The translations under genes and the position numbers were made by a program. The notes below the pieces were generated by a model. The model saw only the letters and a list, made by a program, of their open reading frames with translations, ran no database searches and was not told the DNA's origin. DNA of 64,000 nucleotides from Peronospora farinosa (Eukaryota; Oomycota; Peronosporomycetes; Peronosporales; Peronosporaceae). The stretch spans positions 124,001 to 188,000 of the forward strand of contig CANTFK010000726.1 in assembly GCA_947646735.1 (NCBI GenBank), given 5' to 3'. Shown piece by piece: positions 919 to 31,500 of this stretch (its first letter is position 1; every line of letters begins with the position of its first letter).

Positions 919-1835
919 CTACGTCTGCAGCCCACTTGCGGGTATGTTCGTAAGGGAAATAAATTTGGTACCCCACCTGTTCGTCCCGGAGACCCAGTAC
1001 AAACCCGATCGTCGCATTTTCCTTGGGTCGTGGTCGATCTGGACCCTTTGGCACGTAACATACGCGAATGCCCCAAACACGCGAATATGATGAAGATCTG
1101 GTTTGACACCAAACATGCGTTCGTGCGGTGTGCAGTTTGCCGCCTTGTTGTAAACGCGATTTTTGAGGTATACAGCATATTCAAAAGCATCTGGCCATAA
1201 CTGGGGTGAAAAATCAGAGTCTCGAAGCATCGTATTCGTCATGTCACTTAGCGACTGGTGTTGTCTCTCCACGGGATTCATGTGAGAACTTTTTGGTCCA
1301 TTGGTCCAACCTGCACATGCTGAATTCCTCGTGCGTTATACCATGCATCGATATCGTGGTATACAAACTCACCACCTTTGTCCGTCAGAATAATCTTCAC
1401 CGGTAACGTGCGATGTCCTTCCATGATATGCCAACTACGATGCACAATCTTCTTGATGCTTCGTCCAGCTTGCCGCTCGGCCCAATTGACGTAGTTTTTC
1501 ATCAACTCATTCACCGTTTCTGCGTCCTTCTTTGCCAGAAGATGTGCTGTCAAGTATCGCGAATAACCGTCCATAATAACGAGAATTGCCGTATACTTGG
1601 TGCCATTATTTCTCGATGGAAAAAGAAGATCAGCATACACAACTTGATTGAGACCTGTGATATCGTGCTCTTTCTTCTTGTTTCGACGTTGGTGCCGCTG
1701 TTTGCCAACATGACATGCGTCACACGAAGATGATTTCCACCCCGTCAGAATCATACCATGGACAAAGCCTTGATCAACCATGGTCTTCAAATACTGTTCA
1801 CAGGTGTGTCCAAGACGCTGATGCCAAAGTTTCAT
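919..1835 (-). pseudogene. Copia integrase remnant (GAG-pre-integrase + rve core)
   Basis: 1278-1835 begins MKLWHQRLGHTCEQYLKTMV, the HRLGH of the GAG-pre-integrase zinc region. It continues with CDACHVGKQ (the CXXC half), then VVYADLLFPS and ILTDKGGEFV, which carry the first two Asp of the DDE core. The frame then shifts at about 1280 and continues as MNPVERQHQSLSDMTNTMLR, giving the catalytic Glu (the ERQHQSL region), up to a stop at 919. Integrase inserts the cDNA. The frameshift between the second Asp and the Glu disables it. Confidence 0.8.
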
Positions 1836-2083
1836 AGTAGCCAGTTCATCTACCGCTGAATACTTTGCTTCTGCCTGAGGTAACGTTCCAGCATTAAAAG
1901 AATAAACGACTGGATTTTCCGCATGATCTGAGTGATGCGGTCCCCACTTTCCGTGGATTCAGAGGTAGCATCGAGTTCAGCACTCGATATGATGAGAATC
2001 CCCACGTTCCATCATGATGTTCGGCTCGGATAAGCGGTTGGTCACGATAGTAGACCATAAAATCCGTGCTTGAAGTAGCCATG

Positions 2084-2370
2084 TCAACTTCGAATCCTTG
2101 TTCGACTGCCCTTCCATTGAGAAAAGTCAGTGTTCCGCATCTGGAACATGCAACACGTGGTCCAGGAGAAACATTTCTCTATCCCATCAACTTTTGTAAC
2201 AATTATAATGGTACCCATTCCAGTCACTTGTGAATGGAGCGCTGTTGATATACCGGAGAGGCTAATTTCCGACTTTGATGGAACCGAATTATACTCAACA
2301 AGATCTTCTCGATTTGGTGACACGCGAACGTTTGCACCTGTGTCGAAACACCGTGATGTGTGACTATTGC
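2084..2370 (-). pseudogene. Copia aspartic protease remnant
   Basis: The minus strand encodes FDTGANVRVSPNREDLVEYN, with the DTGA active-site triad of a retroviral-type protease, followed by a glycine-rich flap-like stretch (SGISTALHSQVTGMGT). It sits between gag and integrase as expected for Copia. A frame break separates it from the gag piece and another from the integrase piece. The enzyme would cleave the element polyprotein, but this copy cannot make a full product. Confidence 0.6.
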
Positions 2371-2536
2371 GGTACTGTCAGCAATTTTAATTCTTTCTGA
2401 CAACCCCTTAACCTTTTGTTTTGCAACACCACTTCCTCGCTTGGTCACCCGCTGCGAAATAGAGATAGCTGGTATCGAAGATTCCGACATTTTTTACGTC
2501 TTCAACCTCAATAAATCTACCTCGCATGTAATTTGT

Positions 2537-3417
2537 TTATCTTGACCTCGCGAATTTTTCACCGCCTGCGCCTCTTCTGCGCATGTGTAGCAAAACATAC
2601 GCGTGGCTTTGTAATTCTCGTACCGCTTCTTTACAATTACGTTTCAAATGTCCTGTCTTGCCGCAGTTGTAACAAGACCTGGTGTCCTTCCTCTCCCCCC
2701 GTCCAATCGTATTCTTTCTCGCTTTGTCCCCTTTTCTTGACCCTGCATATTCTCCTTGTAGATACCCTCCATGTGAAAATCCCTTAGTTGACTTTCGAAT
2801 TTGATACCTTGAGCTTGATGCACGAATCTGCTCCTCCAACTCGTCCATATCTTTAGCTAGTGAATTTCCACACCAGTTCTGCGTTTGGATCAGTCCGAAT
2901 TCTGGTACCGTGCTGGGTAGACTCTGTAGTGTATACATCATCATTGTCGTAAACGAGAGCTTGCTTCCATAATCCGCCAGTTCAAGCTCCTTGTTTTTCA
3001 TCTGACGCAAATGATCCTCGATATCAATGTCAGAATTATATCGCATTCGGCGAAGCTCTTCTTCAAGACGTTGCTCAGCGTGAAAAGTCGCAACTGTATT
3101 TGCTCGAATTTCAAACCGCTTGCAAAGTGTTGCAAACAGTGCACTTCCTGTCTAATCCGTCCTATAGAGTTTCGCCAGCTCTGGCGAAAGTGACATCATA
3201 ATCTCTCGTTGGCCTTGCCTTCATCAGTTGAGAGATACTTCCGGCTGATATGACCGCATGCAACATCCCAAAGTTCTTGGTCGATGTTTTGTAGCGCCAT
3301 CATCGCTATTTCCTTGTAGGTATGCCAGTACTGACCTTTAAAGTTACGTGGCATGCCATCCTTTGAATACATCTTCACACCTTGTCCGCTATCCTGAGGG
3401 ACCATAGTTGAGCTCAT
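2537..3417 (-). pseudogene. Copia gag remnant with CCHC zinc knuckle
   Basis: Two minus-strand pieces in different frames: 3196-3417 (73 aa, starting MSSTMVPQDSGQG) and 2537-3046 (169 aa). The second contains the nucleocapsid knuckle CYNCGKTGHLKRNC (CX2CX4HX4C) preceded by a basic Arg/Lys/Gly tract. The helical region before it (DMDELEEQIRASSSRY) is typical of the UBN2/gag domain of Copia elements. Gag packages the element RNA. The frame change around 3050-3195 shows the gene is broken. Confidence 0.75.
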
Positions 3418-5494: not shown

Positions 5495-7416
5495 TCACAC
5501 AAAGCGACTTCTCTCAGCACTCCTCCTCGGGCACCTGTGTCTCACCTCTTGGCGTACTAGCAGCCCTCGTAGCGTTGCCATCTTGGACGGATCGACCACC
5601 TTTGTGAACAAGTCTGCCAGGATGAGCTCTGAGCGCACGTGCTGAGCCTCGATCACGCCTTGACGAGCGAGGTCACAGAGAAATTTCAATCGGACGTCGT
5701 TGTGATTCGCTTTAGTTGATGTCGCTTCGCCGTTGATCTGGCAAATGGCGGCCTAATTTTCGATGCGCATCGTCATTGGTAGCTCTATTTGAATGCCGAT
5801 CTCACGCAGCATTTCACAAATTCCTAGCCGCTCCCGTGCCACTTCGGATGTATCCACGAATTCAGCTTTCATGATGTTGAGTGTGACGTCACCTTGCTTC
5901 TTCGCACACCAGCTCACAACCATACCGTTAAGTCGCACGACGCCGCCGGTGATAGACTTGTGATCCTGTTTGTCTGCTGCAAAGTCTGCATCACTGAACG
6001 ACTCGAGCGTCGGTGCGTCGCCCGCGTCGCGCTCTGGCACCAACTTGATTTTCAACGCGATTGTCCCCTTCAAATTACTTGCGATTCGCTTGGCGAGTTT
6101 TCAGTCGTGCACACGAGGTTAGCGCGTCTGTCGTGTTGCTTTGTGTACTGCAAACGACACGTCTGGTAGCGTGCATCGTGCGATCCAAAGTAGCGAGCCG
6201 ACTAGAGACGGAAAGACCTGATCGTCGCGTGCTTGCCTGCGTTGTTATTGTCGAGTAGTTTGCTGTCAGCATCTTTCACCCTGTACACGTCTGCTCCAAT
6301 TGGCGAACGTGTAATATTCGCGTCGCTAAATCCATTCTCTCGCAGCAACTCGACGATGGTCTCCTCTTGGTCCAAAAGGTAACTCCTACTTGCCTTCTTG
6401 TTCACACGCATTTCGAGAAACTTCGCAACTGGACCGAGATTTTTGATCGATAGACACTGCATCACGTCTAAAAACTACTTTACGACTGCCGTAGACGTTT
6501 TAGTGACAAGTATGTCGTCGACGTAGACTCCTGCAATTACGAGCTCTGCGTCCACTCGCCTGTAGTTCAAGCAGCTGTCTCTGATGCACTGCGTATACCC
6601 GTCTTCGACGAGTCGCTGATGCAACAGCTGACTCCAGAGTCGGTCGGCCTGTTTGAGGCCATAGAGACTTTTGCGTAGCTCTAGAGCCAAGTTGTTCGTG
6701 CTCGTGACGCCGAGCTTGCGCATGCGCGCCGCTGGTACGTCCATGCCGCTCAGGATGTGCAGCAAGATCTAGAGGTGCGGCTCTTTCGACGCTTTGACAT
6801 ACGCAATTTGTATGTCACCGTGCTGAGCCGGAATGCCCCACGCCGCAAGTGCCAGGATCATTTTCACTGTGACATATCCATGACTGCCGCGAAGGTCAGG
6901 AAGTAGTTAACGCCCAAAACTTAGTCGTTGCCACAGGCAACCAAGTGGGCTTTGCGACGTTTGAGCTCACCTTCCGCGGTCGTCTTTAAGACCCACTTGG
7001 ATATAAGACGTTGCTGCCACTCGGACGGCGGACAACTGTCCACACGTCGTTGGGCCTCGAGAGCCGCGAGCTCCTCCTCCATCACCTTCTTTCATTTCAA
7101 ACACTTCGTGCTCTTAATCGCTTCGCGGCAATTCTTCGAATCGGGTTCAAACACGTGGCTCACCACGTCGGTGCTACGAGCGGCCTCGTCCTGGCTCGTA
7201 ACGGACATCTTCGACGCTGCACGTGTGGCGATCGGTTGTCTCGTCCACTTGTGCTTTTTCTTTGGCTTCTTGTCAGACGCGTTGTGCTCACGTTGCTTTG
7301 CATGCACTGGCTCTTGAACGTCGCTGCTGATGTTCGCATTTGCACGGTCATTGTTCTCTAGCTTGCGCTGCAGTTGTGCGCTCAGCGCTGTTGGCACTTT
7401 CTCGATGTTTTTGACA
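5495..7416 (-). mobile_element. Second Ty1/Copia element: RT and RNase H part
   Basis: Minus-strand pieces give, in order, an RT N-terminal part (about 6780-7092), the RT palm with YVDDILV (6475-6765), the RT C-terminal part (6202-6465), RNase H (5753-6073) and the RNase H tail LADLFTKVVD (5495-5689). The right end at 7416 abuts the TSD of the nested Gypsy. The missing 5' part resumes at 15072 on the far side, so this is one Copia copy split by the insertion. Confidence 0.85.
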
Positions 7417-7421
7417 TGATG
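7417..7421. repeat. Target site duplication TGATG, left copy
   Basis: TGATG immediately precedes the left LTR (TGTAACGGGG) and is repeated at 15067-15071 after the right LTR (ending CATTACA). Five-base duplications are usual for Ty3/Gypsy insertions. Deleting the element plus one copy rejoins the Copia integrase-to-RT linker. Confidence 0.9.
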
Positions 7422-7791
7422 TGTAACGGGGCTAGAACGTACCGTCACTAGCTTACACGTGCGCTCGAGGAAGACTCAAGCCCAAGTATTAGGTATTAAG
7501 TAAATTTAACTCTGATTTTTATTTTGGTTTTAATTCGTACTAATTACAAAATTTTTAGTCGTAATAAATACGACAGTGTTCCCGCCTTTCGGGAATTACA
7601 CAATTTCAGGTTAAGAGGTAATAGGACCAAATATTCGTGTCCCTATATCATTGGTCCATATTGGGGACTTTAGGCCCAATAATAAACCAATAATAAATTA
7701 CCATGCTGTGCCCGCTATTCGGGCCCACCACCTGCCTACATATGTAATTGTTTATTGTGTTAATACTATATGTGTAATGTAGCCCATTATA
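7422..7791 (-). repeat. Gypsy 3' LTR (370 bp)
   Basis: It begins TGTAACGGGG and ends CCCATTATA. The partner ends CCCATTACA, so the terminal CA has mutated to TA here. It contains small inverted repeats such as TTCCCG..CGGGAA and GTCGTA..TACGAC. It holds about 28 bp (around 7612-7645) that the partner LTR lacks. Confidence 0.92.
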
Positions 7792-7803
7792 TCACCCCCT
7801 TCT
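7792..7803 (-). other. Gypsy polypurine tract
   Basis: On the minus strand GAGAAGGGGGTGA lies directly before the 3' LTR, the expected plus-strand primer of reverse transcription. The ATG of the antisense ORF (7805) almost touches it. Confidence 0.75.
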
Positions 7804-7804
7804 C

Positions 7805-9214
7805 ATGACAGCACCCACCAACCGTGAGTGCTTAACTGTCGAAAATCCTTCGCCCACAAACGAACAAGCAATGTCCGGAGACCCAACACCCAATCCAGCA
7901 GAACACCCAAGATACATCAGCGGGAATGCATCAACCAGCATCATGGCGCGGCAGCTCATACCTTGGTCGCTGTACGACTTGTCCGGAGCTCACGCTCCGG
8001 ACTCGCTGGACATGATGCGGGACTACTTCCGCCGATTTCGTAAACTGCGCGGGAAAGGTCTTGATGGAATCGAGCATGAAGCTCTACAACGTTCTTGGTG
8101 CGCCTTCATCCAACGTTGGAATCGGATGCTCGAGGATGGTAGCAGCTTCCAATTATGGCTCGCCAATCGAGAGGAGCTTCGCGCCGATCACTCCATCGGC
8201 GCGCTACGCGAAAGAGTGTGTGAGGAAGCTTGGAATGAGGACCGTCTCTGCTTCGTCCATGTCAATGTAGGATGCCAATCTTGTGACTCGACTCCACGCC
8301 CAACTCATGACGAATGGCGACGACACATCGCTGAGTGTCCACTCAGTGATCGCGAACGAAGTTGGATTGCAAAGTATGAGCGAAGTCTGAGCGAACGGGG
8401 AAGCGCAGTTATTCGTGGTGCGCCTCGCTGGCAGCACCACTCGCGACAGCGGAGTCAATCTCCGCGGGATCATCAGCGCAGGGCAGCGACACGTTCGCTT
8501 TCCCGTCCTGCTGCGCGATTCTCGCCTCGCAATCGCGATATGCATTCACCGCGACGTTCTCGTTCACGGCATCGTTCCCGTTCCCGACGACGTGGATCTC
8601 CTTACCGCTCTCGTTTGTCACGAGAGCGTTCGCGTGCTCGCCCGCATTGGAATAGCCCGACTTCGTGGCTTCATACGACAGAACCACATCTGGAACGTCA
8701 CGAAGGAGTGAGGAACGTGGTTCCCATGTATCCTGCTCGGGAGGGAATCCTAGCCAACGTACTCGGTACCTGCGCACGTATGGAGCCGCGCGCTTCTCAT
8801 GAGCCGACTGCAGTGCTGGTTGTGGAGGATCCTCGTGACCCAAAATGCGGTCTACAATCTAGCGTACCTGTCCCTCCGCATCAACAAGCGGAGGAGGGCC
8901 CTCGCGATGGTAGTGCTGGCGTCCTGGTTGCTCAAGACGATGTTGATCAGGCCGTGAACATAGCTGCCGATGCTCAGCTGGAGGCTGAGGCTGCCAGTGA
9001 ACGTGCTGCCCAGGCGTAGAAGACTTCAAGTGAGACCCGGCAGTCGATCCGTGAACTGCTCGAACGGATAAGGATTCTGGAGCGCCAGATGCTTGGTCAG
9101 GTTCAGACGGGATCGAGGCTCCGCCCCATGTCATCGGCGCGTCGAGCACGACGGGAAGGCCGTTCGACTTACGAACCCCTGAAGCCGGCGCCGGAGCCAA
9201 ACTGTGAAGCGTAG
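7805..9214 (+). CDS. Antisense accessory ORF of the Gypsy element: C2HC zinc motif, RS tract, coiled coil
   Basis: This ORF runs opposite to pol. The first 404 codons are open, a TAG follows at 9017-9019, and the same frame stays open for 64 more codons to TAG at 9212-9214 (about 469 aa if the internal TAG is read or was once sense). Residues about 50-155 look globular and Trp/Arg-rich. At about 156-180 there is CQSC..H..C (CX2CX13HX3C), a possible zinc finger. Residues about 215-280 are an RS-rich tract (SRSRHRSRSRRRGSPYRSR). The end, on both sides of the TAG, is Ala/Glu/Arg heptad-like (ELLERIRILERQM). No family is recognised. The start lies 13 bp from the 3' LTR, and the last 800 bp overlap the pol/chromodomain coding strand. 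The position suggests expression from an antisense promoter in the LTR, which is inferred. Confidence 0.6.
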
Positions 9215-9245
9215 CCGGACGATATTCCTTCAGCCGCCCGACATT
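8409..9245 (-). pseudogene. Gypsy pol C-terminus with chromodomain
   Basis: This continues the integrase frame past a TAG at 9246-9248: VGRLKEYRPA, a Pro/Ser-rich linker, another in-frame TAG at 8859-8861, then IVDRILGHEDPP...YRVRWLGFPPEQDTWEPRSSL, a chromodomain with its aromatic residues and the WLG..DTWEP core, followed by an acidic tail to the stop at 8409. Chromodomains target integration to marked chromatin. The two stops separate it from integrase in this copy. Its coding DNA is shared with the antisense ORF. Confidence 0.8.
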
Positions 9246-9258
9246 CTATGTCGGGCGG
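9234..9258. repeat. Perfect 11-bp inverted repeat with 3-bp loop spanning the pol stop
   Basis: Arms CCGCCCGACAT and ATGTCGGGCGG flank the loop TCT (plus strand). On the minus (coding) strand the loop reads AGA, so the codons are CCG ACA TAG. With the loop inverted they would be CCG ACA TTC TAT, giving PTFYVGRLK, the usual sequence of this element class. Confidence 0.85.
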
Positions 9259-10573
9259 AGTCGCAGTGATGAGGGTACGTCGAGTGTATAAGCGTCGCCA
9301 ATTGCCTTCAGAACCTTGAATGGACCGATGAAGCGTGGCGCGAGTTTACTCGCGCCCAGATTAGTGACCGCAGAATCCCTTAAACCTTCCGTAGATAATA
9401 ATACACGGTCACCTTTCTCAAACTTGCTCATGTTCTTTCTTCCATGTTTGTCAGCGTTCTCCTTCTGTTGGTCTACTGCAGATTTTATTGCGTCGCGTAC
9501 AAACCGGGTGATGCCTTGACGTTGGAGTATAAATTCCGACACAGCCATGTCATCAATTGGTCGCGCCGACTCAATCGGCGCGTAGTTGGCAGTAGGTGAA
9601 CGCTTACCCGAAGACGGGTCAATCAATGTCTGCGCAGTCCATCGATCTAATGGGGACGCCACATCTGATGGCGTCAAATTGGCCGTCTTTGCCTTGGATC
9701 GTGTTACTGCATTCGCGCTCAAAATATCGTGAGCTGCACTCGATCCTTGTTTATCACCTTTATCCCCACCCGAGTGGAGACACTAGGTGTTGTGGGTCGC
9801 CCTACGGCCAGGACAGTAGGAACACGAGGGTGACGAGCCGAACTCACAAAAAATGGCGTCAACCCTGTTGACGCGTGTACGGCATTGTTGATTGCGAACT
9901 CAGCGAGTGGTAAAAATGCACTCCAACTTGTAAATGACGTAGCATAACTCCGAAGAACATCTTCGAGGACCCGGTTCACGCGCTCGGTCTGCCCATCCGT
10001 TTCCGGATGGGCTGCAGTCGACATCAGCAGTTTTGTCCCGAGGAGCTCGAAAGGTGACGTCCAAAATGCGGACGTAAATCGCGGATCACGGTCCGAAACA
10101 ATGTTTTCTGGAAGGCCATGATGACGGAACACCGCGTCGATGAAGTGCGCCGCGGTCTCTGCCGCGGTGACCTTAGCGTGAACAGGCACGAGATGTGTCA
10201 TCTTGCTGAATCTGTCAACAAAGACCAAGATGCCCGTGCGAGCTTGGCTATCGGGCGCAAGCCCGAAGATAAAGTCCATCGAAACTGATCTCCAGGCCTC
10301 TGCTGCAATTGGCAACGATCGCAAGGGAGCCTGTGTCGATGGAGATGGCTTCACACGCTGGCATATTTCGCACGTTCGGATCCAGTTTCGTACCCACTTA
10401 TACATGTGGGGCCAGAAGAAGTCTCGAGACACAGCCGCGAAAGTCTTTTCGCGACCTAAATGGCCGCCAGCAGGAGCATCGTGATACTCGTGAATGATTC
10501 TCGCACGCAAATCCATGTCATTGGCAATCACCGTGCGAGGAGAATCGAATTGGTCGATGCTATACAGAAGCAA
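9246..10573 (-). pseudogene. Gypsy integrase (zinc-binding, DDE core, C-terminal domain)
   Basis: 9719-10573 carries the H2C2 domain (IIHEYHDAPAGGHLGREKT, CEICQRVK), then the DDE residues in SMDFIFGL, SDRDPRFTSAFW and DGQTERVNRVLED. A frame change at about 9720 leads to 9246-9722 with KFEKGDRVLLSTEGL and APRFIGPFKVLKAIGDAYTL, the GPF/Y C-terminal module. It ends in a TAG created within the palindrome. Integrase would insert the cDNA. Frameshifts at both ends break the polyprotein. Confidence 0.85.
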
Positions 10574-12522
10574 ATCTCCATCAAGCTGTATCGATGAATA
10601 TGGTCGCGCTTGGTACGGGATAATGCTCCCAGTGCAGCATAGCTGGGAGCACGCAGATACTCGATAATGTCTGCATAATCTGAGTCACCCTTGTACGCTG
10701 CGACGATCTCATCAAATAAACACGGCTCGGGTGTTACCCGAGTTAAGTTCAACGATACACACATTGCACATCGGTCATCATCGTCCTCGTCATCAGTAGC
10801 CTGGCGACTCAGAGCAGTCCGAGGATCGTAGTCGGGACGTCGTGACAAGGCGTCAGCGAGAATATTGGTCTTGCCTGGCTTGTAATGCACGACGAAGTTG
10901 TACTCAGAGAATAATGAGAGCCATCGTGCCATCCGTTGGGACAGGTGTGGGCTCTTCATCGCTGTGCGCAGAGATGCATGATCGGTGTACAAAGCAAACG
11001 TACGTTCACCAATGAGATGCACGCGAAACTTGATGAGTGCATAGCGCATCGCTAATAACTCCTTGTCGTGAACCGGATAGTTCTTCTCAGCTGGCTTCAT
11101 CTGTCGCGACTGGTAACTCACGACTCGTTCACGGCCCTCATCATCAAATTTCATGAGGGCACAACCGATTGCAAAATCACTGGCGTCGCAAACCACGTGG
11201 AACGGCTTGGAATCGTCTGGTAGGACCAGGACTGGCGCTGACGCTAGGCTCTTCTTTACTGCTTCGAAGGCTGCTTGGTGCTCGGGACGCCACAACCACG
11301 TGGCGTCTTTCGTCAAGAGTGACGACAAAGGCTGGATAGAACCAGCATAATCCTTCGTATACTTGTGCAAGTAATTAGCCAAGCCGAGCCACTAGCGCAA
11401 CTCCGTAGGGTTCTTGGGCGTGGGCCAAGAACAGATGGACGACACCTTCTCTGGATCAGCTCGAACTCCCGATTTACTCACATAGCAACCTAACACCGGA
11501 ATCTCCGGTGCACAAAAGACACACTTTTTGAGATTCGCGTACAACTTGTTGTCCCGCATAACTTGAAACACTTGCTTCAGGTGTTCAAGGTGAACTTGGA
11601 CATCGTTGAGGTTGCCCTCGGCGCGACTGTGGACGAAGATATCGTCAAAATAACTTGGGGCAAAGTTCCGAAGAGGTCTCAACACTTGAGACACCATGCG
11701 ATTGAAAGTGGCCGGAGCGTTCTTCAACCCATGTGGCATAACCAGCCACTCCCATAACCAGCCACTCGGGGTGCTCACCGCGGTGAGTGGGATATCGCTC
11801 GGGCGCATCAAAATCTGGTAAAAGCCATTGGTCAAGTCGATGGCACTGAAGATGACGCTTCCTGACATGGAATTCAGCACCATGTCCTTCCTGGGAATTG
11901 GCGTTTGCGCAGGAATAGTGGCATCATTCAACTTATTGAACGCATGCACTATCCGCCAGCCTCCCATATCCTTCTTCACGCAGAAGGTTGGACTAGAATG
12001 TGGTGAGATACTCTACCGCACATGACCCGCTTTGCGGCGGCCTTCGAAGAATGCGTCAATAGCTTCGACTTGATCTCGAGGCAACGGCCACTACCGTGTC
12101 ACACAATACTTCGACCCTGGCACGAGATCAATCTCGTGCCGAACACCACGGTCCGCAGGAAGTTCAGCCGGGATCTTGTCCGGGAACACGTCTGCATACT
12201 CACGAGCAATGTCGTAGACGGGGTTACCAGACTCTCGCAGGGCCTCCCATGACTGTGATGCAAACCTTTCTTCACGCGCAGACTTCGGCTCAGCGCTTCG
12301 AGGACGCGCCATATGCTCCTCGTTTGCCACGGTAACCACCTCGTTGGTGATTAGACACACTTGTTCCACAGTGCCTCCCTTAAGGTCACGTAGGAAATGC
12401 TTCCAGGAGAGCCCTGGAAGGCTTGTAATGGAAGACGCATCACGAGGAGGACTCTCGACTTCGATATATTGGCGCCTTTGTGGACTCCCTTCCACGTACA
12501 CGATAGCGTGGACACATTCCAA
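10528..12522 (-). pseudogene. Gypsy reverse transcriptase and RNase H
   Basis: One minus-strand frame holds the pre-RT region ([10 protein letters not shown]), RT with TPIPRKDMV, FSAIDLTNGFYQI, WLVMPHGLKNAPATFNRM and the catalytic YFDDIFVHS, then RNase H with FHVVCDASDFAIGCAL, KELLAMRYAL, TDHASL and NILADALSRRPDY. It is interrupted only by in-frame TAGs at 12091-12093, about 12021 and 11392-11394. Each falls where related elements have Gln or Glu (for example R-Q-WPLP, LR-Q-WLGLANYL), so simple C-to-T or G-to-T changes explain them. The frame is lost near 10550. Confidence 0.9.
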
Positions 12523-12658
12523 CGCTAAATTATCGGTGCTGTTGTCCCCATCGTGCTTCGAGTCGCTACTAGAGGCTGGCGAACCGCAGTCAGGTGATAA
12601 ACCATCACCCTCTCTCTAGGCACTGGATGTCCTCATTTACGATGCCGGAAACACTAGA

Positions 12659-12985
12659 CGGGAGAACCCCAAACTCGACCGTCGACACTTGATGCGGGAG
12701 CTCCTGCTCGGCCGCCGTAAACCCGTGTGGGAGCCCCTGCTCAACCACAATATGCCCATGTGGGAACCTCGGTTCGACCACAGTGGGTGATGATGGGAAC
12801 GCCGGTTCGACCATCATGCTCTCGCGTGGGGACTCCTGTCCGTCCACGTCACACTCGTTGGCGAGCTCTTACTCGTCGTCACAATGCCCTTGTGGGAGCC
12901 CCTGCTCGACCACAATAGGTGCAGATGGGAACCCCTGTTCAACCGCATTCATGACGCGCGGAAGCCCCTTTTCGACCGCGTCGTC
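12659..12985. repeat. About ten imperfect 33-bp tandem units in the protease-RT linker
   Basis: Units of the form tgggagcccctgctcgacca plus 13 variable bases repeat about ten times with substitutions. On the coding strand each gives an 11-residue motif like VVEQGLPHGF / VVEPRFPHGH. The unit length is a multiple of three, so the polyprotein frame would tolerate copy-number change. Confidence 0.75.
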
Positions 12986-13033
12986 CTCGTCGTTCTCCTC
13001 TCTGTAGAGCGACGAGTCACTGTCACTTGTGTC

Positions 13034-13606
13034 TCAAGGAACAGAACAAGCAGTGCAGAGAGGGCCAACGATCGCTCTGTGCACCGCCAACGTCGTCGAA
13101 TCACGATCCACGATTGTGACGTTCGGCCAGTCACTTGGAGATACCAAGAGATGGGTAAACACTTCACTGACATCGAACTTGCGTCGACGTCTCACTGATC
13201 TGGCTAACCAGTCGATCTGGGGCTTATAACGTGCCAACCATGGCATGCCCAGTATACAATAGAATGCATAATTCATTGCGATCACCAAGAAATCATCATT
13301 ACTGCGAAAGTCATCAAACGTATACGGCAACGACACTTCGCGTCGCGATACGCGGTGTGGTTTCCCATCAGCCAACTTGACGACGACTTGGCCAGGTCCC
13401 TCACGGACCTGAATGCTTGGAGGCAGCATCGATAAACAAGATTCACGAAAGAAATTATTTGTTGCTCCTGAGTCCAGGAGTGCTCGCAGAGGTCGCCGGA
13501 CGCCGGCGACATGTAAACTGACAATGATCAGACGTGAATCACCACTCGTAGTGGTGGCATTTAACCGTGCGCGTATCGCAGGAGGACTGGAAGGTTGGGC
13601 TGCCAC
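13034..13606 (-). pseudogene. Gypsy retropepsin-like protease region
   Basis: The minus-strand 190-aa stretch has SLHVAGVRRPLRALLDSGAT with the DSGA catalytic motif, a flap-like region (GQVVVKLADGKPHRV) and the ILGMPWLARYKPQIDW that closes retropepsin-like domains. It lies between the gag zinc knuckle and the RT. The piece itself is open, but a frame change separates it from gag upstream and from the RT frame downstream, so it is part of a broken polyprotein. Confidence 0.8.
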
Positions 13607-13650
13607 CGGGGGACCCGGACCTCAGTTCCAACCAGTAGGGCGCCCTGCAC

Positions 13651-14698
13651 CTACTGGTCCCGACCGTTTTTTGGACGTGCGGCCGGTACAGCACCCTCAT
13701 GATGGGCGTCCACTACTTGCACCGATATTGGAGCTGGCGCACGGCACTCTGCCGCGCGATGTCCTGGCTTGCGACAACGAAAGCAAACCATTTGACGCCC
13801 GGTGAGAGCGTCACCTTTATGATGAAAGACACGTCGCCGGTCACTCGACGACTCAATAACGTCGATCTCCATAGGTTCTGGACCAGAAGGCCGGGGAACG
13901 ATGACGACCGAGGGTTTGGCATAGCCTTCGTGACCCTAAAGTCTTCACGGACTGCGATGGCAAATGCCTCCTCCAATGTGGCAGGCTCGGCGCGCTCCAG
14001 CGATAAGCGGGTCTGCCCCTCACGCATACCACCCACAAAAACATTCACCTGCGTGTACATGTCCATGGGTGCGTGATAATACACGACACCAGATGCCTAG
14101 CCATCTGTACGTAGTCGCGCATCGCCATTTTACCCTGTCGCATCGACAGGAATCTTGATCGCACCAGTTTCTCCTCTTGTGGTGGCTCGAAAGCAAGACG
14201 AAGATCGTCCTGGATGGTATCCAAGGTGGGGAATGCGTGCTCGTCCACAACGAGCTTACCAAGGGCCCACTCCTTGGCCTTCCCGGTGAGGCGGGAAAGA
14301 AGAAAGTTGACCTTCGCCTGTGGAGCCTCATGAAGTCTCGAGGCGATGGCGATATCAGCTTCTCGAAATCATCAATTCAGCGACAACCGGTCCTTACCTT
14401 CTCCAGAGTAGGAGGAGGTTTCCATCTTCACGGCCTCATTACGTGAAGGGCGCGAGGGAGTTAAGCCTCGCCGGTTGGATTCGGCGAGCTCGCGTGCCAT
14501 AAACTCATGTATGGCGAGACGTTGCGCGTCAGGGGTCGCTGATCTCATCAGCGACGCGACGAATGCCTCTCCCGATATCGCCGCGAGGCGATTAAGGGCA
14601 TCCCACTCAACACCAGTAAGATGGGGGAAGGTCGCGTGCTCCAAAAATAAGTCTGGAGCGTCAAAGTACGACGATTCGCTCATCCCAAACTCGGGCAT
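13651..14698 (-). pseudogene. Gypsy gag (Retrotrans_gag + CCHC knuckle), frameshifted
   Basis: It starts MPEFGMSESSYFDAPDLFLE near the 5' LTR. After TGA TGA at about 14369-14374 the capsid domain continues in frame ([20 protein letters not shown]). It shifts frame at about 14060-14080 by loss of one base (ITHP / [17 protein letters not shown]) and again before the nucleocapsid knuckle CFRCRKPGHRAAEC (CX2CX4HX4C, 13651-13872). The double TGA lies where related elements have Arg-Trp. Gag would build the virus-like particle. This copy cannot. Confidence 0.8.
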
Positions 14699-14704
14699 AG
14701 GAAG

Positions 14705-14722
14705 GACTACAAAGTGCTACCA
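14705..14722 (-). other. Gypsy primer-binding site
   Basis: Two bases after the 5' LTR the minus strand reads TGGTAGCACTTTGTAGTC. The leading TGG matches a tRNA CCA end. Which tRNA is used cannot be stated from here. Confidence 0.55.
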
Positions 14723-14724
14723 GG

Positions 14725-15066
14725 TGTAACGGGGCTAGAACGTACCGTCACTAGCTTACACGTGCGCTCGAGGAAGACTCAAGCCCAAGTATTAGGTATT
14801 AAGTAAATTTAACTCTGATTTTTATTTTGGTTTTAATTCGTACTAATTACGAAATTTTTAGTCGTAATAAATACGACAGTATTCCCGCCTTTCGGGAACC
14901 ACACAATTTCAGGTTGATTTATCATTGGTCCATATTGGGGACTTTAGACCCAATAATAAACCAATAATATATTACCACGCTGTGCCCGCTATTCGGTCCC
15001 AGCACCTGCCTACATATGTAATTGTTTATTTGTGTTAATAATATATGTGTAATGTAGCCCATTACA
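14725..15066 (-). repeat. Gypsy 5' LTR (342 bp)
   Basis: Runs TGTAACGGGG to CCCATTACA with 5-bp inverted ends (TGTAA/TTACA). It aligns along its whole length with 7422-7791 except for one gap of about 28 bp and roughly a dozen substitutions, by eye. Confidence 0.92.
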
Positions 15067-15071
15067 TGATG
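15067..15071. repeat. Target site duplication TGATG, right copy
   Basis: Matches 7417-7421. The following TGTGACGACAAATG continues the interrupted Copia element. Confidence 0.9.
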
Positions 15072-15445: not shown

Positions 15446-16884
15446 CTAGCCGACACGATCAATTGGAGAGTGCGCGCTGGTGTCCTTTTTGCTTTGTCTG
15501 TTCTTCGTCTGTTTGCTCTGAGCACACGTGATGCACGTTATGCGTCTGTGATCCGTGATGCGAGTTCCACTGCCCGGGTTGTTTGCGATCCTCTCGATCT
15601 TGTCATACACCATTCGCTCTAAAATGTCCAAACGGGTCTTCAGGCGGTCATACCCCTGACGGTCCCTCGTCCTCACATCGCGCAGATCCGAAGTCAGTCG
15701 TGAGACTTGACTCTCGAGATTTGTCACCTGCCTCTTCAGCGCAGCGGACTCAGTCTTCGACTGAACAGCAGCAGGGTAGGCAGCCGCGAGTAGGTGGGCG
15801 TAATCGCCGCTCCTATCGGGCGCCACCTGTGTTGGTGGACACGGAAGGAAATACGCGCTTCCTTGTTGGAAGGCTGTTGGCCCACCGGTTTGTGAAGCGA
15901 AAGCTCCAAATCCTTGTCCAGTGGAAGGGTTACCCAACGAGCTTTGACTCGTGGGAGCCTGTGGACGCATTGCGCGTTGACGTGCCTGGGCTGGTGGCTG
16001 CTTATGTGAAGCAGCACCAGCTGGCGTCTTTCTTCTAGGTCCGGAAGGACTAGCAGAAGAAGCGTGGCGAGAATCAATTGGGGGTCGCTTACCACCCAAA
16101 ATTTCATGCGCACGCTTTATGGCGAAGTTTATTCGCTGCGACCGTTGTTTCGTTTCATCTACATGCAACGTTACACGGCGCCGAAGTTCAGCTTCATATT
16201 CGTCGGCTGTTTCGTTAGAACGCAGCACGACTGGAATTGGGAAAGCACGACCAAGTGCTTTGCCCTGCTTTTTCCACAAGGGAAAGACGCTATAAAACTT
16301 ATGAGTGTCAATAGTGGCACGCTGCAAAAGCGCTGCGCTAGAACCATCTGAGTTTATCCACTCAAGATGGAGGTGGCATTGGTGGCAAGCCACCACTCAC
16401 GTAGCCGCCCTCGCGACGGCGGGCGAGTGAGGCCGAAGGTGTACTTGGTGGAGCTTTAAGCTCACACTCACCTGAGTCTGACTCTCCATTATGGATTGTC
16501 AAGAGAAGTTACATCTGACTACTCCTTTCGAAGTAGCGCGCTCAGTCTTAGTCGCTGCGCTCGGAGGCGCAGACGACGAGGTTTTACCTTCGCTTGTAGG
16601 AAGCATAGATGCTTCCTCAAGGACGGGTGCCTCAAATGATGGGGACATATGTCCCATCAATGCACTATGCTCATCGCCACTTTGGGGTGATGGCAGTGGT
16701 GTGGTCTCATTGTAGTCCACAACGAGAGATGGATCTTCATCCACATTATCGTGAGATGGAAGATTCACCCCAGTGCAGACGCACTTTGCGACGGCTGCGA
16801 TAAATCGCGGCGCGTGCGCTTAGTGCTGGACTGCATGGGTGCCTTTGCAGGCGACCCATCAGGCTTACCACGTTTCGGTGGCAT
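15446..16884 (-). pseudogene. Antisense accessory ORF of the second Gypsy, broken
   Basis: It starts MPPKRGKPDGSPAKAPMQSS at 16884, reading away from the LTR toward pol. The frame shifts at about 16770, continues as an acidic Ser/Pro-rich stretch (16499-16768), meets stops and shifts at about 16400-16500, and then stays open for 316 codons (15446-16396). That last part has a basic/helical region (RRRVTLHVDETKQRSQRINF), a Pro/Gln/Gly-rich middle, and a strong C-terminal coiled coil (LKRQVTNLESQVSRLTSDLR...LKTRLDILERMVYDKIERI). The C-terminal half lies opposite the chromodomain. Total length if repaired is about 480 codons. No family is recognised. Confidence 0.55.
15583..16038 (+). pseudogene. 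Gypsy pol C-terminus with chromodomain (second element)
   Basis: The frame is open from about 15560 and ends PPVLVDTEGNTRFLVGRLLA, then LQILVQWKGYPTSFDSWEPV, a canonical chromodomain with the VQWKGY..DSWEP core, closed by TAG at 16036-16038. The Ser/Arg/Gln-rich stretch before it is the linker. The integrase upstream is missing. The whole segment is overlapped on the other strand by the antisense ORF. Confidence 0.8.
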
Positions 16885-24975: not shown

Positions 24976-24990
24976 ACTGTAAGCTATGAT
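24976..24990. repeat. LINE target site duplication, left copy
   Basis: ACTGTAAGCTATGAT, exactly repeated at 33967-33981. It brackets an 8976-bp LINE. Confidence 0.9.
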
Positions 24991-25057
24991 ACTTCCTGAT
25001 TTGCGGCTAAGTACGCAGACGAATTACTGGGCACGAGGAAGGGTACCTTTTTTTACC

Positions 25058-28000
25058 ATGAACTCTGACGATGGCGATGTGCCGCTGGGCGATGCTCCTT
25101 CACCACTTAAGAGCCAAGGTGCACAAGTGCATTGGAAACAAGTGCCTGGTCCTGGGCCAGCGGCGGCTGGTCGGGTCTCGTTCGCGACTGCGGTCAACGG
25201 CCTCGGCAACCGCATCGACCCCGACGAATGTATCGACCCTGGCGTACCTAACGGACCCGGCGGAAAAAACGACCCTGGCGAACCTACCAGCCTTGGCAAC
25301 AGAAAAGGCCCCGTCGACCACAGCGCCTCGACTCCGGCGGAGGTCGGTGGGCCGCAAGACCAACGTGCTTTACTGGTGCGCACAGCTTCGAGACCTTGGA
25401 TTGATAAGGTGGATGATGATCTGCGTCCAATGATTCCACTTGAGGAGGAGGCGCTCGCAGCTTGGTTGATGGGAGGCATTGTACTTCCGTCACCGCCCGG
25501 TTTTTTGGTATGCACGCACCCAAGAGCCACGCGGGTTGCGATGCTTGATTTTTTTGAGGAATACCTTGAAGGCAAGGTCATCGCGCTTGTGCCTCCTTCC
25601 GTCCGTATGCCTCAGCATATTGCTGAGAAAACGTTGCTTTTACAACTGCTGGAACGCCGCGAAGGGGAGACGACTTCCGATCCACTTAGTCGGGAGCTAG
25701 TCAAGGGGGCAAAGCGCGCGTGTTACAATTCGGACACTCGACGCCTCACCTTTATTCTGCCTGACCAGGCGGCTGCGGCGAGCTGGCATACAAAATTCAT
25801 TTCATTTCGTGGTACTCGCCTTCAACTATTGTGTCCAGCAACCATGGAGAGGGATGACATCACTACTTCATTGACGTCCAGTACTACTTCAAGTCGCAAC
25901 ATTCTGCAGTATCAAGTGAGAATTTTGGTTCATGGCGTGGCCGCGAGCACTGTCCAAGCTATCCTCTCGTCGAGTGTGTCATGCTCGGTGACGTCGGTGG
26001 TTCGGGGGTTTCTGAATGGGACAGAGGCGTACGATTCCAACTTCTTTGTCGCTACCTTTAATACCGTTTCATGTCCCGAAGAGATCAAGTTGGTGACACA
26101 CATCAAGACTCCCAACACGACACTTTTTATTCATCATCATCGTCATTTCCAACGGGTCCCCTGTTTTTCTTGTTATTCGCCGTATCATTCAAGTGCAAAA
26201 TGCGCCGCCAGCAGGGGCGGTTTCTTATTTGAGCATCACCGCGAATTCATCGGTACTCACCATGTTGCCAAAACAGTCAGCGTCTTGACTTTTCAGCACC
26301 TCGATGTGAACGAGCGCCTGCAGCATGTCGCCGGCCTGGCAGAGACATTACAGGCAACTACGGCCAAGCTGAAGGATGAAGCTTGCAAGGCACCACTGTT
26401 AACCAAGATCTCACAGAATTTTTAGAGAGACTGTCCAAGGGAGGATACACCCCCCTCTTCTCCCCGTGGACAGCCAGAGGCGAGTGGCGATGCCCCACGT
26501 GCCGCTGGTCCTACTACTGACGGGTGGTTTGACCCAGGTGCGAACAAGAAAAAGCGGGACTCGCGTCCCAACGCGGCTTCAACTACTCAAGCGGCGACTT
26601 CTAATGCTACACCGCTACGACGTCCGACGTCAAAAGCAGCTGAGGGGACCAGCAAGTCGTCGACCCAAGGGTCGGCATCTTCCGCCAAGCAGAGCGCGAC
26701 GAACTCGGTTAAAGTGGCTACGAAACCTTCCTCACCTACTAAGCCAGCAGTTTCTACGAAAGGAAGAGCACCCGCGGCCACTTATTCCGTGACATCAGCC
26801 GCCACTACCAAGGCTACTAAGCAGCGTGCGCAGGCGGTAGCTGAACTGGACCACCTGATCGGAGGTGATCGTACGGCTTCCACGGCAAATCAGGCAACGG
26901 ACACTGTTGCAGTTCTTTCTACGTCTGAGAAGTCATCCAAGGTTACGGCTTTAGCGGTGGCTCAATCTCAAGTTGCGGACGCACAACGCACAGTCGAACT
27001 ACTGACTTCAACCGCTGCAAAAAAGAAGTTCAATGCCGAAAATAAGAAAGCTTGCTACTTCGAGGCTCACGCTCATGCGTTGGAATTAGCTATTGATCGC
27101 GAAGCTACAGGTCTCGACCTTAATACAACTCTCGACGATGTGAATGGTGACTTGCCTACATTGGAGTACAAATATCGCACCGCTGGTGCAGAGGCGAACA
27201 GAGCGGAGACAGCAGCAGCAACGGCCACGAACAAACTACTAAAATTGACACGCCGCTTGACAAAAATTACACCGAAAGAGACGCCCGAGATCGAGCATGC
27301 GGTTAAGGGGGGTTGTCCCACCGCCGAGCGAGATGCCAGCTGCGACGGCAGAGAAAATTAGGGAAAGAGGTCGCGCGACGATACAGCGAATGTTGTCGTC
27401 TTATGTTCGCCGCAAACGGAGCATGCCAAGTGTGACGACCAAGGCAGTACCGGGTGCGGTCCCACCTGGGGTTGCATCACCTGATTCGGCTCCATTGGAA
27501 ATTTCTCCGACATGCCCCCAGGACCCGGACTACTTGGAACACCATGATCTCGATGTAAGTATGGCGGTAAGCAAATCTACGTTTGGAAATACCATGCGCA
27601 TGGATGATATTGATGGAGGGGCCGTAACGCCTCCCCCATGCGCCGCCAGTGTCCCTATACCAGCGGAGCTAGCTAAAGCTATTGAAGACGAGCTCAAGGC
27701 CTACTCAGGAAATATAGCTGACCCAGCCATGGGCACTTACGGTCTGCTGACACGACCCATTGGCTCTAATGAGGTATCGAGTACACAGGTGGCACTTAGA
27801 TCCCCGATGGATTTCATCCGCACTCAAGATACTCACGATCAGACGTTACGTGCAACTAGAGTGCGCAAGGTGCCTGACACTGCATCGACTGCAGTAGCGG
27901 CCGCCGCTGTGCCGGAGGGCACGAAACACATTTCGGCGAACACTGCTGCGATTCGTAGATGGGTTTCTCAGCGCAAAGTGGTTTCTGCGGTACCCACTAC

Positions 28001-28580
28001 ACTGCCAGTTGGTCCAAAGGGTTAATCCGCATGGATTAAAGCGTGTGCATTGGAATTGGCGGCACTTGTCAGTGACCTGCCGCACCCAATTGCTTACCTC
28101 GCCTCGATGTCGAGGGAATCCCTCCAAACCTTTGGACATTCTATCAACAGCGAGTCTCAATTGTCTGTGATACGCCAACATACCACACACGCTGATGAAA
28201 AGCTTCGAGAGCTGTGTACGGGTTGGGCTGCAACGGCAGAAGGTCAGTCTGGGCAAATTCGATGGAAGACGACGGACAACATAACGCGCTGGAGAAAATT
28301 CCACAAATTACAGCCGGAGTTGCTGTGCGCGACTGTCGTGGAACCGCTTCCGGACTTGGATCAATGGGGCGTCCTCAATGTCCTGTGTGTATTGCTATCT
28401 CATCTTGCACCTGTCGAGGATGAGACAAAGGTGGTGATGCCACAGTCCAAAGCGGCATTATACCACCTCTCTAAAGAGGTGCGCGCGGCTGTATCCAGAA
28501 TTTTATGCAAACCTGCCAACTGGCAGCCGGCGATTGACCTTATTGCCCGCGATGGTCAGCTGCTGGGCCTTCAGTACTGA
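25058..28580 (+). pseudogene. LINE ORF1 (nucleic-acid-binding, CCHC), interrupted
   Basis: The start is taken at ATG 25058 (MNSDDGDVPLGD), because the earlier ATG at 24986 lies in the target duplication. The protein has a Pro/Gly-rich N-terminus, two RRM-like regions (TRRLTFILPDQAAAASWHTK and YQVRILVHGVAASTVQAIL), and the knuckle CFSCYSPYHSSAKC (CX2CX4HX4C, about residue 367). The frame continues through a TAG (26423-26425) into a Lys/Ala/Thr-rich segment with an Ala-rich helical region. It shifts in a G6 run (27307-27312), passes a TAA (28023-28025), and ends at 28580. Without these lesions it would be about 1170 aa, long for an ORF1. It would coat the element RNA. Confidence 0.75.
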
Positions 28581-31500
28581 GGGCACCTCGGCTGCGCAAG
28601 GGGCTGATTCGGTAGGGGGGGCGGATCCCAGTCCCTCTTTTCCATATTCTGTAGGGGGACTTAGATCGCTAGACAGGGTTGAGTCTTCTTCCTTTCACCT
28701 TCCAAGGGCAGATACACTTCGACGTCGTCATCGGGGCATGTTGAAGACTTCTCAAAAGCCACGCGAAAACAGCATCGGTCTGCATTCACAAAATGTCGCG
28801 GGATTCCCCAAGCATCCGGAACGCTGTGCAGAATGGTTTGGCCATTTTAGGCAGCGCGAATCACGGGGTGCTATCGACTTGGTCCTATTACAAGAAACGC
28901 GGGTCTCTGTTGGTGAAGCAGCAAGTCTGAACAAGTTTTACAACACCACATGGGGCTTCGTGGACAAGCCCGGACGCACTCGATGGACCGAGTCCGAAGC
29001 AGCGCGTGGAGGGGTTGCGATTTTACTGAATCCGTACTCGTCGATTACTGAGATGGAACCGTGGCATGAGATACATTGGACACCGCACTGGATGTCTGTT
29101 CAAATTAATATTCGAAGCGAGACCGTTCTTGTTGTCAACGTATATGCCCCGAGTGGTAAGCCTGAACGGGAGGCGTTTTTCGAGATGCTTCGCCATCACC
29201 TGCTGGATCACGACGGACCCTTGTTCGTGGGCGGGGATTTTAACTGCACATTGGTGCCTCGACTTGACCGATCTTTTGTCTCGCCGCCCGGCAGACATGA
29301 TTCGCAGGCGCTGAGACGGCTTCTAGGTCGCGCACAACTTTGCGATGTACTCGAAGATGACATGGAGCGAGCGGAAGAAGAGAGGGCCGTAGCAGCTTTT
29401 CATGCGGCGGCACACACCTATTTCTACACTTTTCCTGGAGGTGGATCAGCCAGTTCTCGACTTGATCGGTGGTACGTGAGTGCTCTTCATGCTGATTGGG
29501 TTTGAGACGTCGATCTGTCTGTACCTGGCCCAGCCGCTGACCACAATGGAATCAGTATACGGATTGGGGCACCAAGTCATGTTGTGCGCGTACGTAAGCC
29601 ACGGAGCGTATATCCAGTGCCGGGCTGTGCACAAGCGGCCGCGACCAGCGCCATTATTTCGGCCATTGAGCTGGCACAGATTGAAGTTGATGAATCCAGC
29701 TCAGTTCCGACGTCGGACTATCGAACGGCTAGACGATTGGCCGACTGGTGGGATGGATGGAAGATCAAGTTACGCAAAGTTCTTGTGGCGACTACAAAGA
29801 CAGCCCGCCAAGGTCTGACGCGCAGCTACAGACAGTGGCTGAAGCGCCTCTATGTCCGTCTGGATGCGGCGCTATTGGAGGCGCGCTCGTCAGCTACCTC
29901 AATAGCGTGTGCTCAAACGATATGCGACCAACCCAGCCCCGTTGATAATCCTGCGGAACTTCGTCGAAACGTTGCGGAGTGTCGACGATTATGGCAGAGA
30001 ACCAAGAAAGAGCGACTTCTTGTCCAGCACACATACTCTCCAGGCGAGACTTCTCGTCGTTTCTTCGCGCGGGTGTCGACAAAATTTCAGAACAACACTA
30101 TCGTTTCTTTGGGTGGACAAGCTACATACGGGTCGAATCGGTCGCAGGAATTGGCAAATGAAATGGCAGACGGCTGGGAGCATCTTATGACTCAATTTTT
30201 TGATTGTCCAGATGCTACCGCTGCATTTCTGGAACGAGCCTCCACACCGGTCCGGGTTGATGACTCTATAGTGACGTCAGCTATATCTCCTGAAGATGTG
30301 TGTGCGGCTTTGAAGAGACTTCAACGTGGGAAAGCCGCAGGACCAGATGAAATCAACAACACCTTTTACCGTGATTATGCTGACGCGCTCGCGCCAATTC
30401 TCGCAGCACTGTACACTAGATGGATGGAGTGCAGCGTGTTTCCGACGTCTTTTGGTGAAGCGAACATTCAGTGTCTGAAGAAAACCGCGGCTTCCGCCTT
30501 GCCTCTTGATCATCGGCCGATCGCGCTTCTCAACAGTGACTACAAGTTATTTACAAAGATCCTTTCGTTTCGAGTTCGGCCGATGCTGTCGCATATTGTT
30601 CTGCCAGCTCAAGTTGGTTTTGTCCCGAAGCGGTCGATCCATACAGCTCTTGACATTTTTTCGGCGGTTCGCAAAGCGGCGAGTGCTGACAGCGATCTAC
30701 ACGGATCCATTATTCTTCTTCTCGATTTCGCCAAGGCATACGACACGTTGCAACGTCCGTTTCTACTTTCGGCGTTGACTTGGCATGGCTTCTCGCCAAA
30801 ATTCGTAGCAGTCGTGGCGGCATTACACCGAAACACGACATGTCGATTTATTGTGAATGGGTACCGTTCAAGCAGACGTGACGTTCACTGCGGCATACGG
30901 CAAGGGTGCCCTCTTTCTCCTCTTCTGTTTATACTCGCCTTGGATAGTGTCTATCGAGTGATTCAAGAGAGGGATGAAATCCGCGGGATACCTCTTACTT
31001 CTGGGGGGGAAACCACTGACATTAAAATTTCGGGATACGCTGACGACACGGCGGTTTATCTTCGCGATCGGTCTGCGGTTTTGCCTGTTATTACGATCCT
31101 CGAAGACTTTGCAGCTGTTTCCGGTCTGCTGACGAATCGAGCGAAGTCTATTATCATTGAGCTTGACCCTCGCGGATCATCTTTGCCCTTGGACGCGTGT
31201 GGCCTCAATGTACAGTCTTCAAGCGGATCATGCAGGTATCTTGGTGTACTTGTTGGCCAACAGGATGCGGTAGCTGACAACTGGTGTAAATGCATACGAT
31301 CTCTATGGTGTCGACTTGCACTAGCACGAGAGAAGACTCATACGGTGGAACAACGAGCTCGCATCGCCAGCGCCATCGCGGTGCCCAAAATTACCTACTT
31401 AGCACGGCACCGCTGGCCACCTCCCGCCATGATTAATAGATTGGAGGGCTTAATTATGGACTTTGTATGGGGCATCCATGATGGCAAGAGGTCCCGACCG

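What the first reader, a model, noticed from the sequence alone, without database searches (positions are those of the whole stretch)
7805..9214. Long antisense ORF between 3' LTR and pol in a chromodomain Gypsy element
A 404-codon ORF (469 codons through one TAG) runs opposite to pol. It begins 13 bp from the 3' LTR and overlaps the chromodomain end by about 800 bp. It does not look like a shadow frame: it has a globular Trp-containing N-domain, a CX2CX13HX3C zinc-like motif, an RS-rich tract, and a heptad-like C-terminus that continues past the TAG. By analogy with antisense genes driven from a 3' LTR (HTLV-1 HBZ) or the extra ORFs of plant Gypsy elements, it may be an accessory regulator. 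The RS tract suggests RNA binding or splicing control.
Basis: partly seen in the sequence, partly recalled or inferred. Interest (0 to 1): 0.82.

Follow-up and report, generated by a model that had tools for sequence, protein, structure and literature searches.

The report
Antisense accessory gene in oomycete retrotransposon
A jumping gene of a downy-mildew-like oomycete carries a real, selected extra protein gene on its opposite strand, next to its end repeat and partly overlapping its main gene; a second jumping-gene family in the same genome carries an apparently unrelated gene in the same place.

Summary
The ORF (7805-9019; to 9214 with its own stop) is antisense to gag-pol of a TSD-flanked Ty3/Gypsy element (7422-15066). 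It is a family-wide gene, not a shadow frame. Across 46 copies the domain outside pol (7955-8404) has dN/dS 0.35 (CI 0.25-0.51), like integrase (0.33); stops are few in this frame, while every copy has stops in each of the other five. Nineteen homologues were found (35-74% identity), 14 named as Phytophthora or Peronospora. The in-frame TAG occurs in 2 of 46 copies.

Corrections: the CX2CX13HX3C motif is not conserved; four other cysteines are. The first 50 codons look unconstrained.

New: a second chromodomain Gypsy family, with a remnant in this window (15449-16396 minus), carries a different conserved antisense ORF in the same slot and codon phase. In its overlap with pol the antisense frame has the lower dN/dS (0.50 against 1.14; intervals overlap slightly).

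This is an oomycete variant of the known aORF-3R class (Grande, Retand, RIRE2, Boty). A nuclear RS-rich accessory factor transcribed from the 3' LTR is my best guess; both points are inferred. No convincing fold or domain match.

The parts
7422..7791 (-). 3' LTR of the Gypsy element (element on minus strand); would hold the inferred antisense promoter
   Evidence: ends set by eye from TG..TA/CA and TSD TGATG
7792..7804 (-). polypurine tract next to the 3' LTR; the aORF ATG follows at once on the + strand
   Evidence: sequence; role recalled, not tested
7805..9214 (+). antisense accessory ORF (aORF); in this copy interrupted by a TAG at 9017-9019, a stop in 2 of 46 copies (this one included)
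7805..7942 (+). variable N-terminal tail; 7805-7954 has dN/dS 1.08; an in-frame ATG at 7943 is kept in 45 of 46 copies (the one at 7805 in 41 of 46)
7943..8408 (+). conserved all-helical N-domain with conserved Trp and Cys (C139, C149, C157, C160), outside pol
8417..8659 (+). low-confidence (probably disordered) RS/SR-rich tract, antisense to the pol C-terminal tail (limits approximate)
8867..9214 (+). C-terminal helical, coiled-coil-like region and basic tail, antisense to the linker between SH3 region and chromodomain of pol; aORF dN/dS 0.57, pol frame 0.92
8409..9245 (-). pol 3' part with chromodomain (about 8682-8858); this copy has pol-frame stops at 8859-8861 and 9246-9248; natural stop 8409-8411
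   Evidence: (Chromo PF00385 in copy L002)
9246..9782 (-). pol SH3-like domain region
   Evidence: SH3_Tf2-1 in 9246-9548
9719..10684 (-). pol integrase
10528..12012 (-). pol RNase H and reverse transcriptase
13034..13621 (-). aspartyl protease
14045..14716 (-). gag (Pfam match in 14048-14368; the rest by position only)
14725..15066 (-). 5' LTR, followed by TSD copy 15067-15071
15449..16396 (-). remnant of the second family's antisense ORF (aORF2), opposite a chromodomain pol end; 126 matching stretches in the genome
15559..16038 (+). pol end with chromodomain of the second Gypsy family

Best explanation
It is a genuine accessory protein gene of the retrotransposon, encoded antisense to gag-pol between pol and the 3' LTR, with its 3' half overprinted on the chromodomain-coding end of pol (shown by sequence and selection). 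I think it is transcribed from antisense promoter activity in the 3' LTR (inferred, since only 13 bp separate the LTR from the ATG). The protein has a globular helical domain with four conserved cysteines, a probably disordered RS-rich linker and a C-terminal coiled-coil-like helix. Most likely it oligomerises in the nucleus and binds the element's own RNA or nucleoprotein, tuning splicing, export or transcription of the genomic RNA, in the manner of retroviral Rev/HBZ-type accessory factors (inferred). That it is a selected protein gene: about 0.95. Antisense transcription from the LTR: about 0.7. Nuclear RNA-directed regulation: about 0.4. The confidence below is for the whole.
For: Of 50 copies held, 46 were aligned, the window's own included. 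Outside pol, dN/dS is 0.35 (CI 0.25-0.51) against 0.33 for integrase. Internal-branch changes by codon position are 14/13/49, binomial p 3e-8; integrase 46/44/119. Stops in 7805-8404 total 23 in this frame (29 of 46 copies have none) and 133-536 in the others (0 of 46 have none). There are 19 homologues, 14 of them named as Phytophthora or Peronospora, with Trp, Arg and Cys positions kept in 90% or more. Both frames are open opposite each other in copy L002, while synonymous shuffles of that pol piece leave the antisense frame open in 0.12%. A second family shows the same layout and phase, with selection on its antisense frame. RS tract, C-terminal helix and helical N-domain. The known class is conserved, and the Grande protein is nuclear with its own promoter (PMC7264820).
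Against: No transcript or protein evidence was available. No conserved promoter-like block stands out in the LTR. The RS tract is weakly constrained in the aORF frame (0.94). No coil predictor or localisation predictor was run. Pfam gave only weak matches (seven families at E<=1, best Alanine_zipper 4e-4 in 6 of 20 members), and structure searches gave none. The mirror minus frame also gives 0.35 (it shares third positions), though it carries stops in all 46 copies. Terminal branches keep a weaker skew (106/89/159), and the LTR, cut into arbitrary triplets, gives 5/14/17 on internal branches (p 0.06), so position counts alone are not free of noise. In the overlap as a whole family 1 gives 0.70 in both frames, so dual coding is not cleanly resolved there.
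Confidence: 0.6

Rival explanations
1. The frame is open only because pol codon usage or chance leaves it open (shadow ORF); no protein is made.
For: 806 bp overlap pol; family 1 overlap dN/dS is the same in both frames (0.70 and 0.70).
Against: About 600 bp lie outside pol and hold the most constrained part (0.35); homologues in other species; synonymous shuffle 0.12%.
Confidence: 0.03
2. What matters is the antisense RNA (dsRNA, small RNA or interference with the sense RNA); the protein is secondary.
For: Antisense LTR transcripts can be non-coding regulators (PMC7264820, PMC10186651, passages). In Phytophthora infestans, small RNAs of both strands map along abundant Gypsy elements (PMC3522703, passages).
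Against: Codon-position pattern and protein-level conservation across genera.
Confidence: 0.1
3. The aORF protein is an anti-silencing factor that protects the element from host RNAi or heterochromatin, rather than a regulator of its own RNA processing.
For: Conserved in a multicopy family with many naturally open copies (18 of 50 by the rule); different proteins in the same slot would fit an arms race; oomycete Gypsy elements are targets of small RNAs (PMC3522703).
Against: No sequence or fold evidence; purifying rather than diversifying selection in the domain.
Confidence: 0.2
4. The aORF is a captured host gene or the gag of a nested element.
For: Gene capture by LTR elements is known (PMC7264820).
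Against: No convincing Pfam or PDB relative and no gag hit; none of the 19 homologues bears a functional name or a precomputed Pfam domain.
Confidence: 0.08

Closest known systems
aORF-3R of plant Gypsy elements (Grande gene23, RIRE2, Retand ORF4) and Boty of Botrytis (PMC7264820, parts 1-2 of 3 read; PMC11963269, passages read)
   Same: Antisense to gag-pol, next to the 3' LTR, in many copies and several species, conserved about as well as other element proteins, function unknown
   Different: No TRP28 or SMC match in Pfam; host is an oomycete; element has a chromodomain; 806 of 1410 bp of the gene overlap pol instead of lying in a long spacer
HTLV-1 HBZ and HIV-1 ASP (PMC10186651, abstract and passages read)
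   Same: Antisense gene reached from the 3' LTR; HBZ also has a C-terminal coiled-coil (bZIP) region
   Different: No bZIP here; not a retrovirus; HBZ and ASP do not overlap pol (recalled)
Chronos and chromovirus Ty3/Gypsy elements (PMC5348765, abstract and passages read)
   Same: Ty3/Gypsy order with chromodomain at the pol end; Chronos is an oomycete group
   Different: In the passages seen no antisense ORF is described, and the listing counts no use of 'antisense' in that paper; the second RNase H of Chronos was not found in the pieces scanned
SR proteins
   Same: RS-rich tract
   Different: No RRM or other Pfam RNA-binding domain

Membership tests
aORF-3R (antisense additional ORF between pol and 3' LTR) | Antisense to gag-pol | tested here: met
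aORF-3R (antisense additional ORF between pol and 3' LTR) | Lies between pol and 3' LTR | tested here: met
   Starts 13 bp from the LTR and 604 bp lie before the pol stop; the other 806 bp overlap pol, which departs from the usual layout
aORF-3R (antisense additional ORF between pol and 3' LTR) | Present in many copies and in other species | tested here: met
   177 matching stretches in the genome, some copies giving two; 19 homologues
aORF-3R (antisense additional ORF between pol and 3' LTR) | Present in most copies of the family | tested here: inconclusive
   Copies were found by searching for the ORF itself, so the share lacking it was not measured
aORF-3R (antisense additional ORF between pol and 3' LTR) | Conserved about as well as other element proteins | tested here: met
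   N-domain dN/dS 0.35 against 0.33 for integrase
aORF-3R (antisense additional ORF between pol and 3' LTR) | Antisense transcription | not testable with these tools
   no RNA data
HBZ/APH antisense proteins | bZIP domain | tested here: not met
   no bZIP family among the seven matched by any of 20 members at E<=1
Retand TRP28 antisense proteins | PF04195 domain | tested here: not met
   not among families matched by any of 20 members
SR proteins | RRM plus RS domain | tested here: not met
   RS tract present, no RRM in Pfam
Ty3/Gypsy with chromodomain | gag, PR, RT, RH, INT, chromodomain in this order | tested here: met
   the chromodomain hit is in copy L002, as this copy's frame is interrupted
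Chronos | Second (archaeal/plant type) RNase H | tested here: inconclusive
   only RT_RNaseH types found, and not all of pol was scanned

The most novel reading that the evidence does not exclude
The strand opposite the chromodomain end of pol in oomycete Gypsy elements is a recurrent accessory-gene slot. At least two unrelated proteins (or one with a replaced N-domain) have been overprinted there in the same codon phase, and in the second family the antisense protein now constrains the overlap more than pol does.
Probability: 0.4. Interest if true: 0.75.

Novelty: new variant of a known kind. Interest (0 to 1): 0.58.

Why it matters
Antisense accessory genes of LTR elements are described mainly from flowering plants and a few fungi (PMC7264820), and their function has stayed open. 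Here are two different ones in a stramenopile, with measured protein-level selection and long antisense overlap with pol. They give a comparative set (two families, many copies, several species for the first) for asking what such genes do and how antisense genes are born by overprinting. Public records list the relatives as hypothetical or unnamed proteins.

Tried and rejected

Literature: the listings (titles and abstract starts) showed no paper on an antisense ORF in an oomycete Gypsy element. I read PMC7264820 (parts 1-2 of 3) and passages of PMC5348765, PMC11963269, PMC10186651 and PMC3522703; the others were seen as listings only. Subscription papers are not held, so a report there is possible.

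Full report
The window lies in an unnamed 46.85-Mb genome of 274 contigs. The second family's antisense protein is 94% identical over its whole length to a Peronospora effusa protein and 97% over two thirds to one of P. farinosa. The host is therefore a Peronospora-like downy mildew (inferred).

The element. LTRs at 7422-7791 and 14725-15066 (324 of 336 ungapped columns identical; the 3' LTR has a 33-bp insertion at 7613-7645 found in no other of the 46 aligned copies) are flanked by the 5-bp repeat TGATG. Reading on the minus strand: gag, aspartyl protease, reverse transcriptase, RNase H, integrase, SH3-like domain, then a chromodomain region. The Chromo profile matches that region of copy L002 (E 1.4e-7). 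In the window copy the pol frame is interrupted at 9246-9248 and 8859-8861, positions without a stop in at least 42 of 46 copies. The TAA at 8409-8411 that ends pol is in all 46.

The antisense ORF. It starts at 7805, 13 bp from the LTR, and ends at 9212-9214 (stop in 43 of 46 copies). The TAG at 9017-9019 is a stop in 2 of 46 copies, this one included, so it is a lesion and not part of the gene. The genome holds 177 matching stretches (one copy can give two; only the best candidates were scored, so this is a lower bound). By a simple rule (N-domain to C-tail, at least 440 residues) 18 of the 50 copies I held are fully open; these 50 are biased towards good matches.

Selection. I aligned 46 of 50 copies over window 7351-10700. 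L012, L013, L024 and L056 were dropped for long inserts or rearrangement; L023, also long, was kept. Outside pol, 7955-8404 has pairwise diversity 0.035, 0.031 and 0.073 at codon positions 1, 2 and 3 of this frame; integrase has 0.045, 0.034 and 0.084 in its own. dN/dS is 0.35 (CI 0.25-0.51, bootstrap over codons) against 0.33 (0.26-0.42) for integrase. The same region read in the other two plus frames and two of the three minus frames gives 1.05-1.37; the LTR in arbitrary triplets gives 0.74-1.17. The third minus frame also gives 0.35, because its third positions coincide, but it has 192 stops over the 46 copies and no copy free of them, against 23 stops and 29 free copies for the aORF frame. 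On internal branches of the copy tree the changes are 14, 13 and 49 at positions 1, 2 and 3 (p 3e-8 against equal shares); integrase has 46, 44 and 119. Terminal branches keep a weaker skew (106, 89, 159), and the LTR in arbitrary triplets gives 5, 14 and 17 (p 0.06), so counts of this kind carry some noise. The first 50 codons look unconstrained (1.08). A later in-frame ATG at 7943 is kept in 45 of 46 copies, and homologues P0006, P0008 and P0017 start at that place. The working start may be there.

Overlap. The aORF and pol pair codon positions 1-1, 2-3 and 3-2 (from coordinates). In family 1 the overlap as a whole shows 0.70 in both frames. Its RS part leans to pol (aORF 0.94, pol 0.46), and its C-terminal part leans to the aORF (0.57, CI 0.40-0.86, against 0.92, CI 0.62-1.40; the intervals overlap). 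Shuffling synonymous pol codons of copy L002 leaves the antisense frame open in 0.12% of 5000 trials (family 2, copy L033: 0.2%). These two copies were taken because both frames are open in them, so this is an illustration rather than a sample.

Homologues. Nineteen proteins match (35-74% identity), 14 named as Phytophthora or Peronospora and five without a name; only the 7990 best candidates were scored. Conservation centres on residues 50-205: W98, W105, W118, C139, C149, C157 and C160 are kept in 16-19 of 20 aligned sequences. AlphaFold gives an all-helical N-domain (residues about 52-204, block pLDDT mostly 74-91), a low-confidence middle and a C-terminal helix; the whole model is poor (mean pLDDT 56, pTM 0.31). 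No solved or viral predicted structure matches.

A second case. At 15449-16396 (minus) the window holds the remnant of another antisense ORF opposite another chromodomain pol end (15559-16038). The genome has 126 matching stretches. Open copies encode about 481 residues: basic N-terminus, acidic stretch, partly helical centre, a long helix that looks like a coiled coil, RS-rich tail; 7 of 20 copies held are open by my rule. It has 14 homologues with E<=0.001: nine named as Peronospora effusa or P. farinosa or 88% or more alike, and distant ones down to 46% identity without a name. Outside pol, dN/dS over 20 copies is 0.48 (0.35-0.65), and 0.29 (0.18-0.47) for residues 150-289; by codon-position diversity the first half is much less constrained. 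The two other plus frames give 0.97 and 1.66; stops are 4 (16 of 20 copies free) against 199 and 603 (none free); minus frames were not run. In its overlap with pol the antisense frame gives 0.50 (0.32-0.81) and the pol frame 1.14 (0.73-1.87); the intervals overlap slightly. Pol upstream gives 0.37. In that overlap pol third positions (aORF second) vary less than pol second positions, 0.036 against 0.051. So the antisense protein is the better guarded reading there. The two antisense proteins show no homology in their globular parts and at most a weak one at the C-terminal part, yet share slot, strand, phase, helix and RS tract.

Mechanism. Shown: protein genes under purifying selection, antisense, near the 3' LTR, overlapping pol. 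Inferred: transcription from the 3' LTR, since hardly any other element sequence lies upstream; nuclear site and RNA-directed role, from RS tracts, basic stretches and long helices and from the nuclear Grande protein (PMC7264820). The alternative roles are listed as rivals; small RNAs of both strands on Gypsy elements of Phytophthora infestans (PMC3522703, passages) keep an RNA-level or anti-silencing role open.

Known kind. Vicient and Casacuberta (PMC7264820) define antisense ORFs between pol and 3' LTR; Retand (PMC11963269) and Boty are further cases. The two oomycete families fit that kind but differ in protein, in host and in being mostly (family 1) or partly (family 2) overprinted on pol. 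My searches (listed under Tried and rejected) showed no earlier report in oomycetes, within an open-licence library and by listings only.

Noticed in passing
window 15446-16819: Remnant of a second chromodomain Gypsy family with its own conserved antisense ORF, here in pieces in different frames (by eye).
   Followed up: yes
window 24983-33873 (+): Long ORFs including a 1455-aa frame that reads by eye like a non-LTR (L1-type) reverse transcriptase with a C-terminal RNase H-like end.
   Followed up: no
window 919-3046 (-): Decayed Copia-like element: integrase-like pieces by eye and a gag piece with a CCHC knuckle (Pfam hit for 2537-3046).
   Followed up: partly
window 7613-7645: 33-bp insertion in the 3' LTR, absent from the 5' LTR and from the other 45 aligned copies.
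   Followed up: yes
window 12665-12980: Direct repeat of 33-bp period inside the element between protease and reverse transcriptase regions.
   Followed up: no
proteins P0002, P0018, P0026, P0030, P0032: Homologues from source 'lgn' on short contigs of about 2-3 kb; if that source includes RNA-seq assemblies they could be transcripts of the antisense genes. The tool does not show their origin.
   Followed up: no
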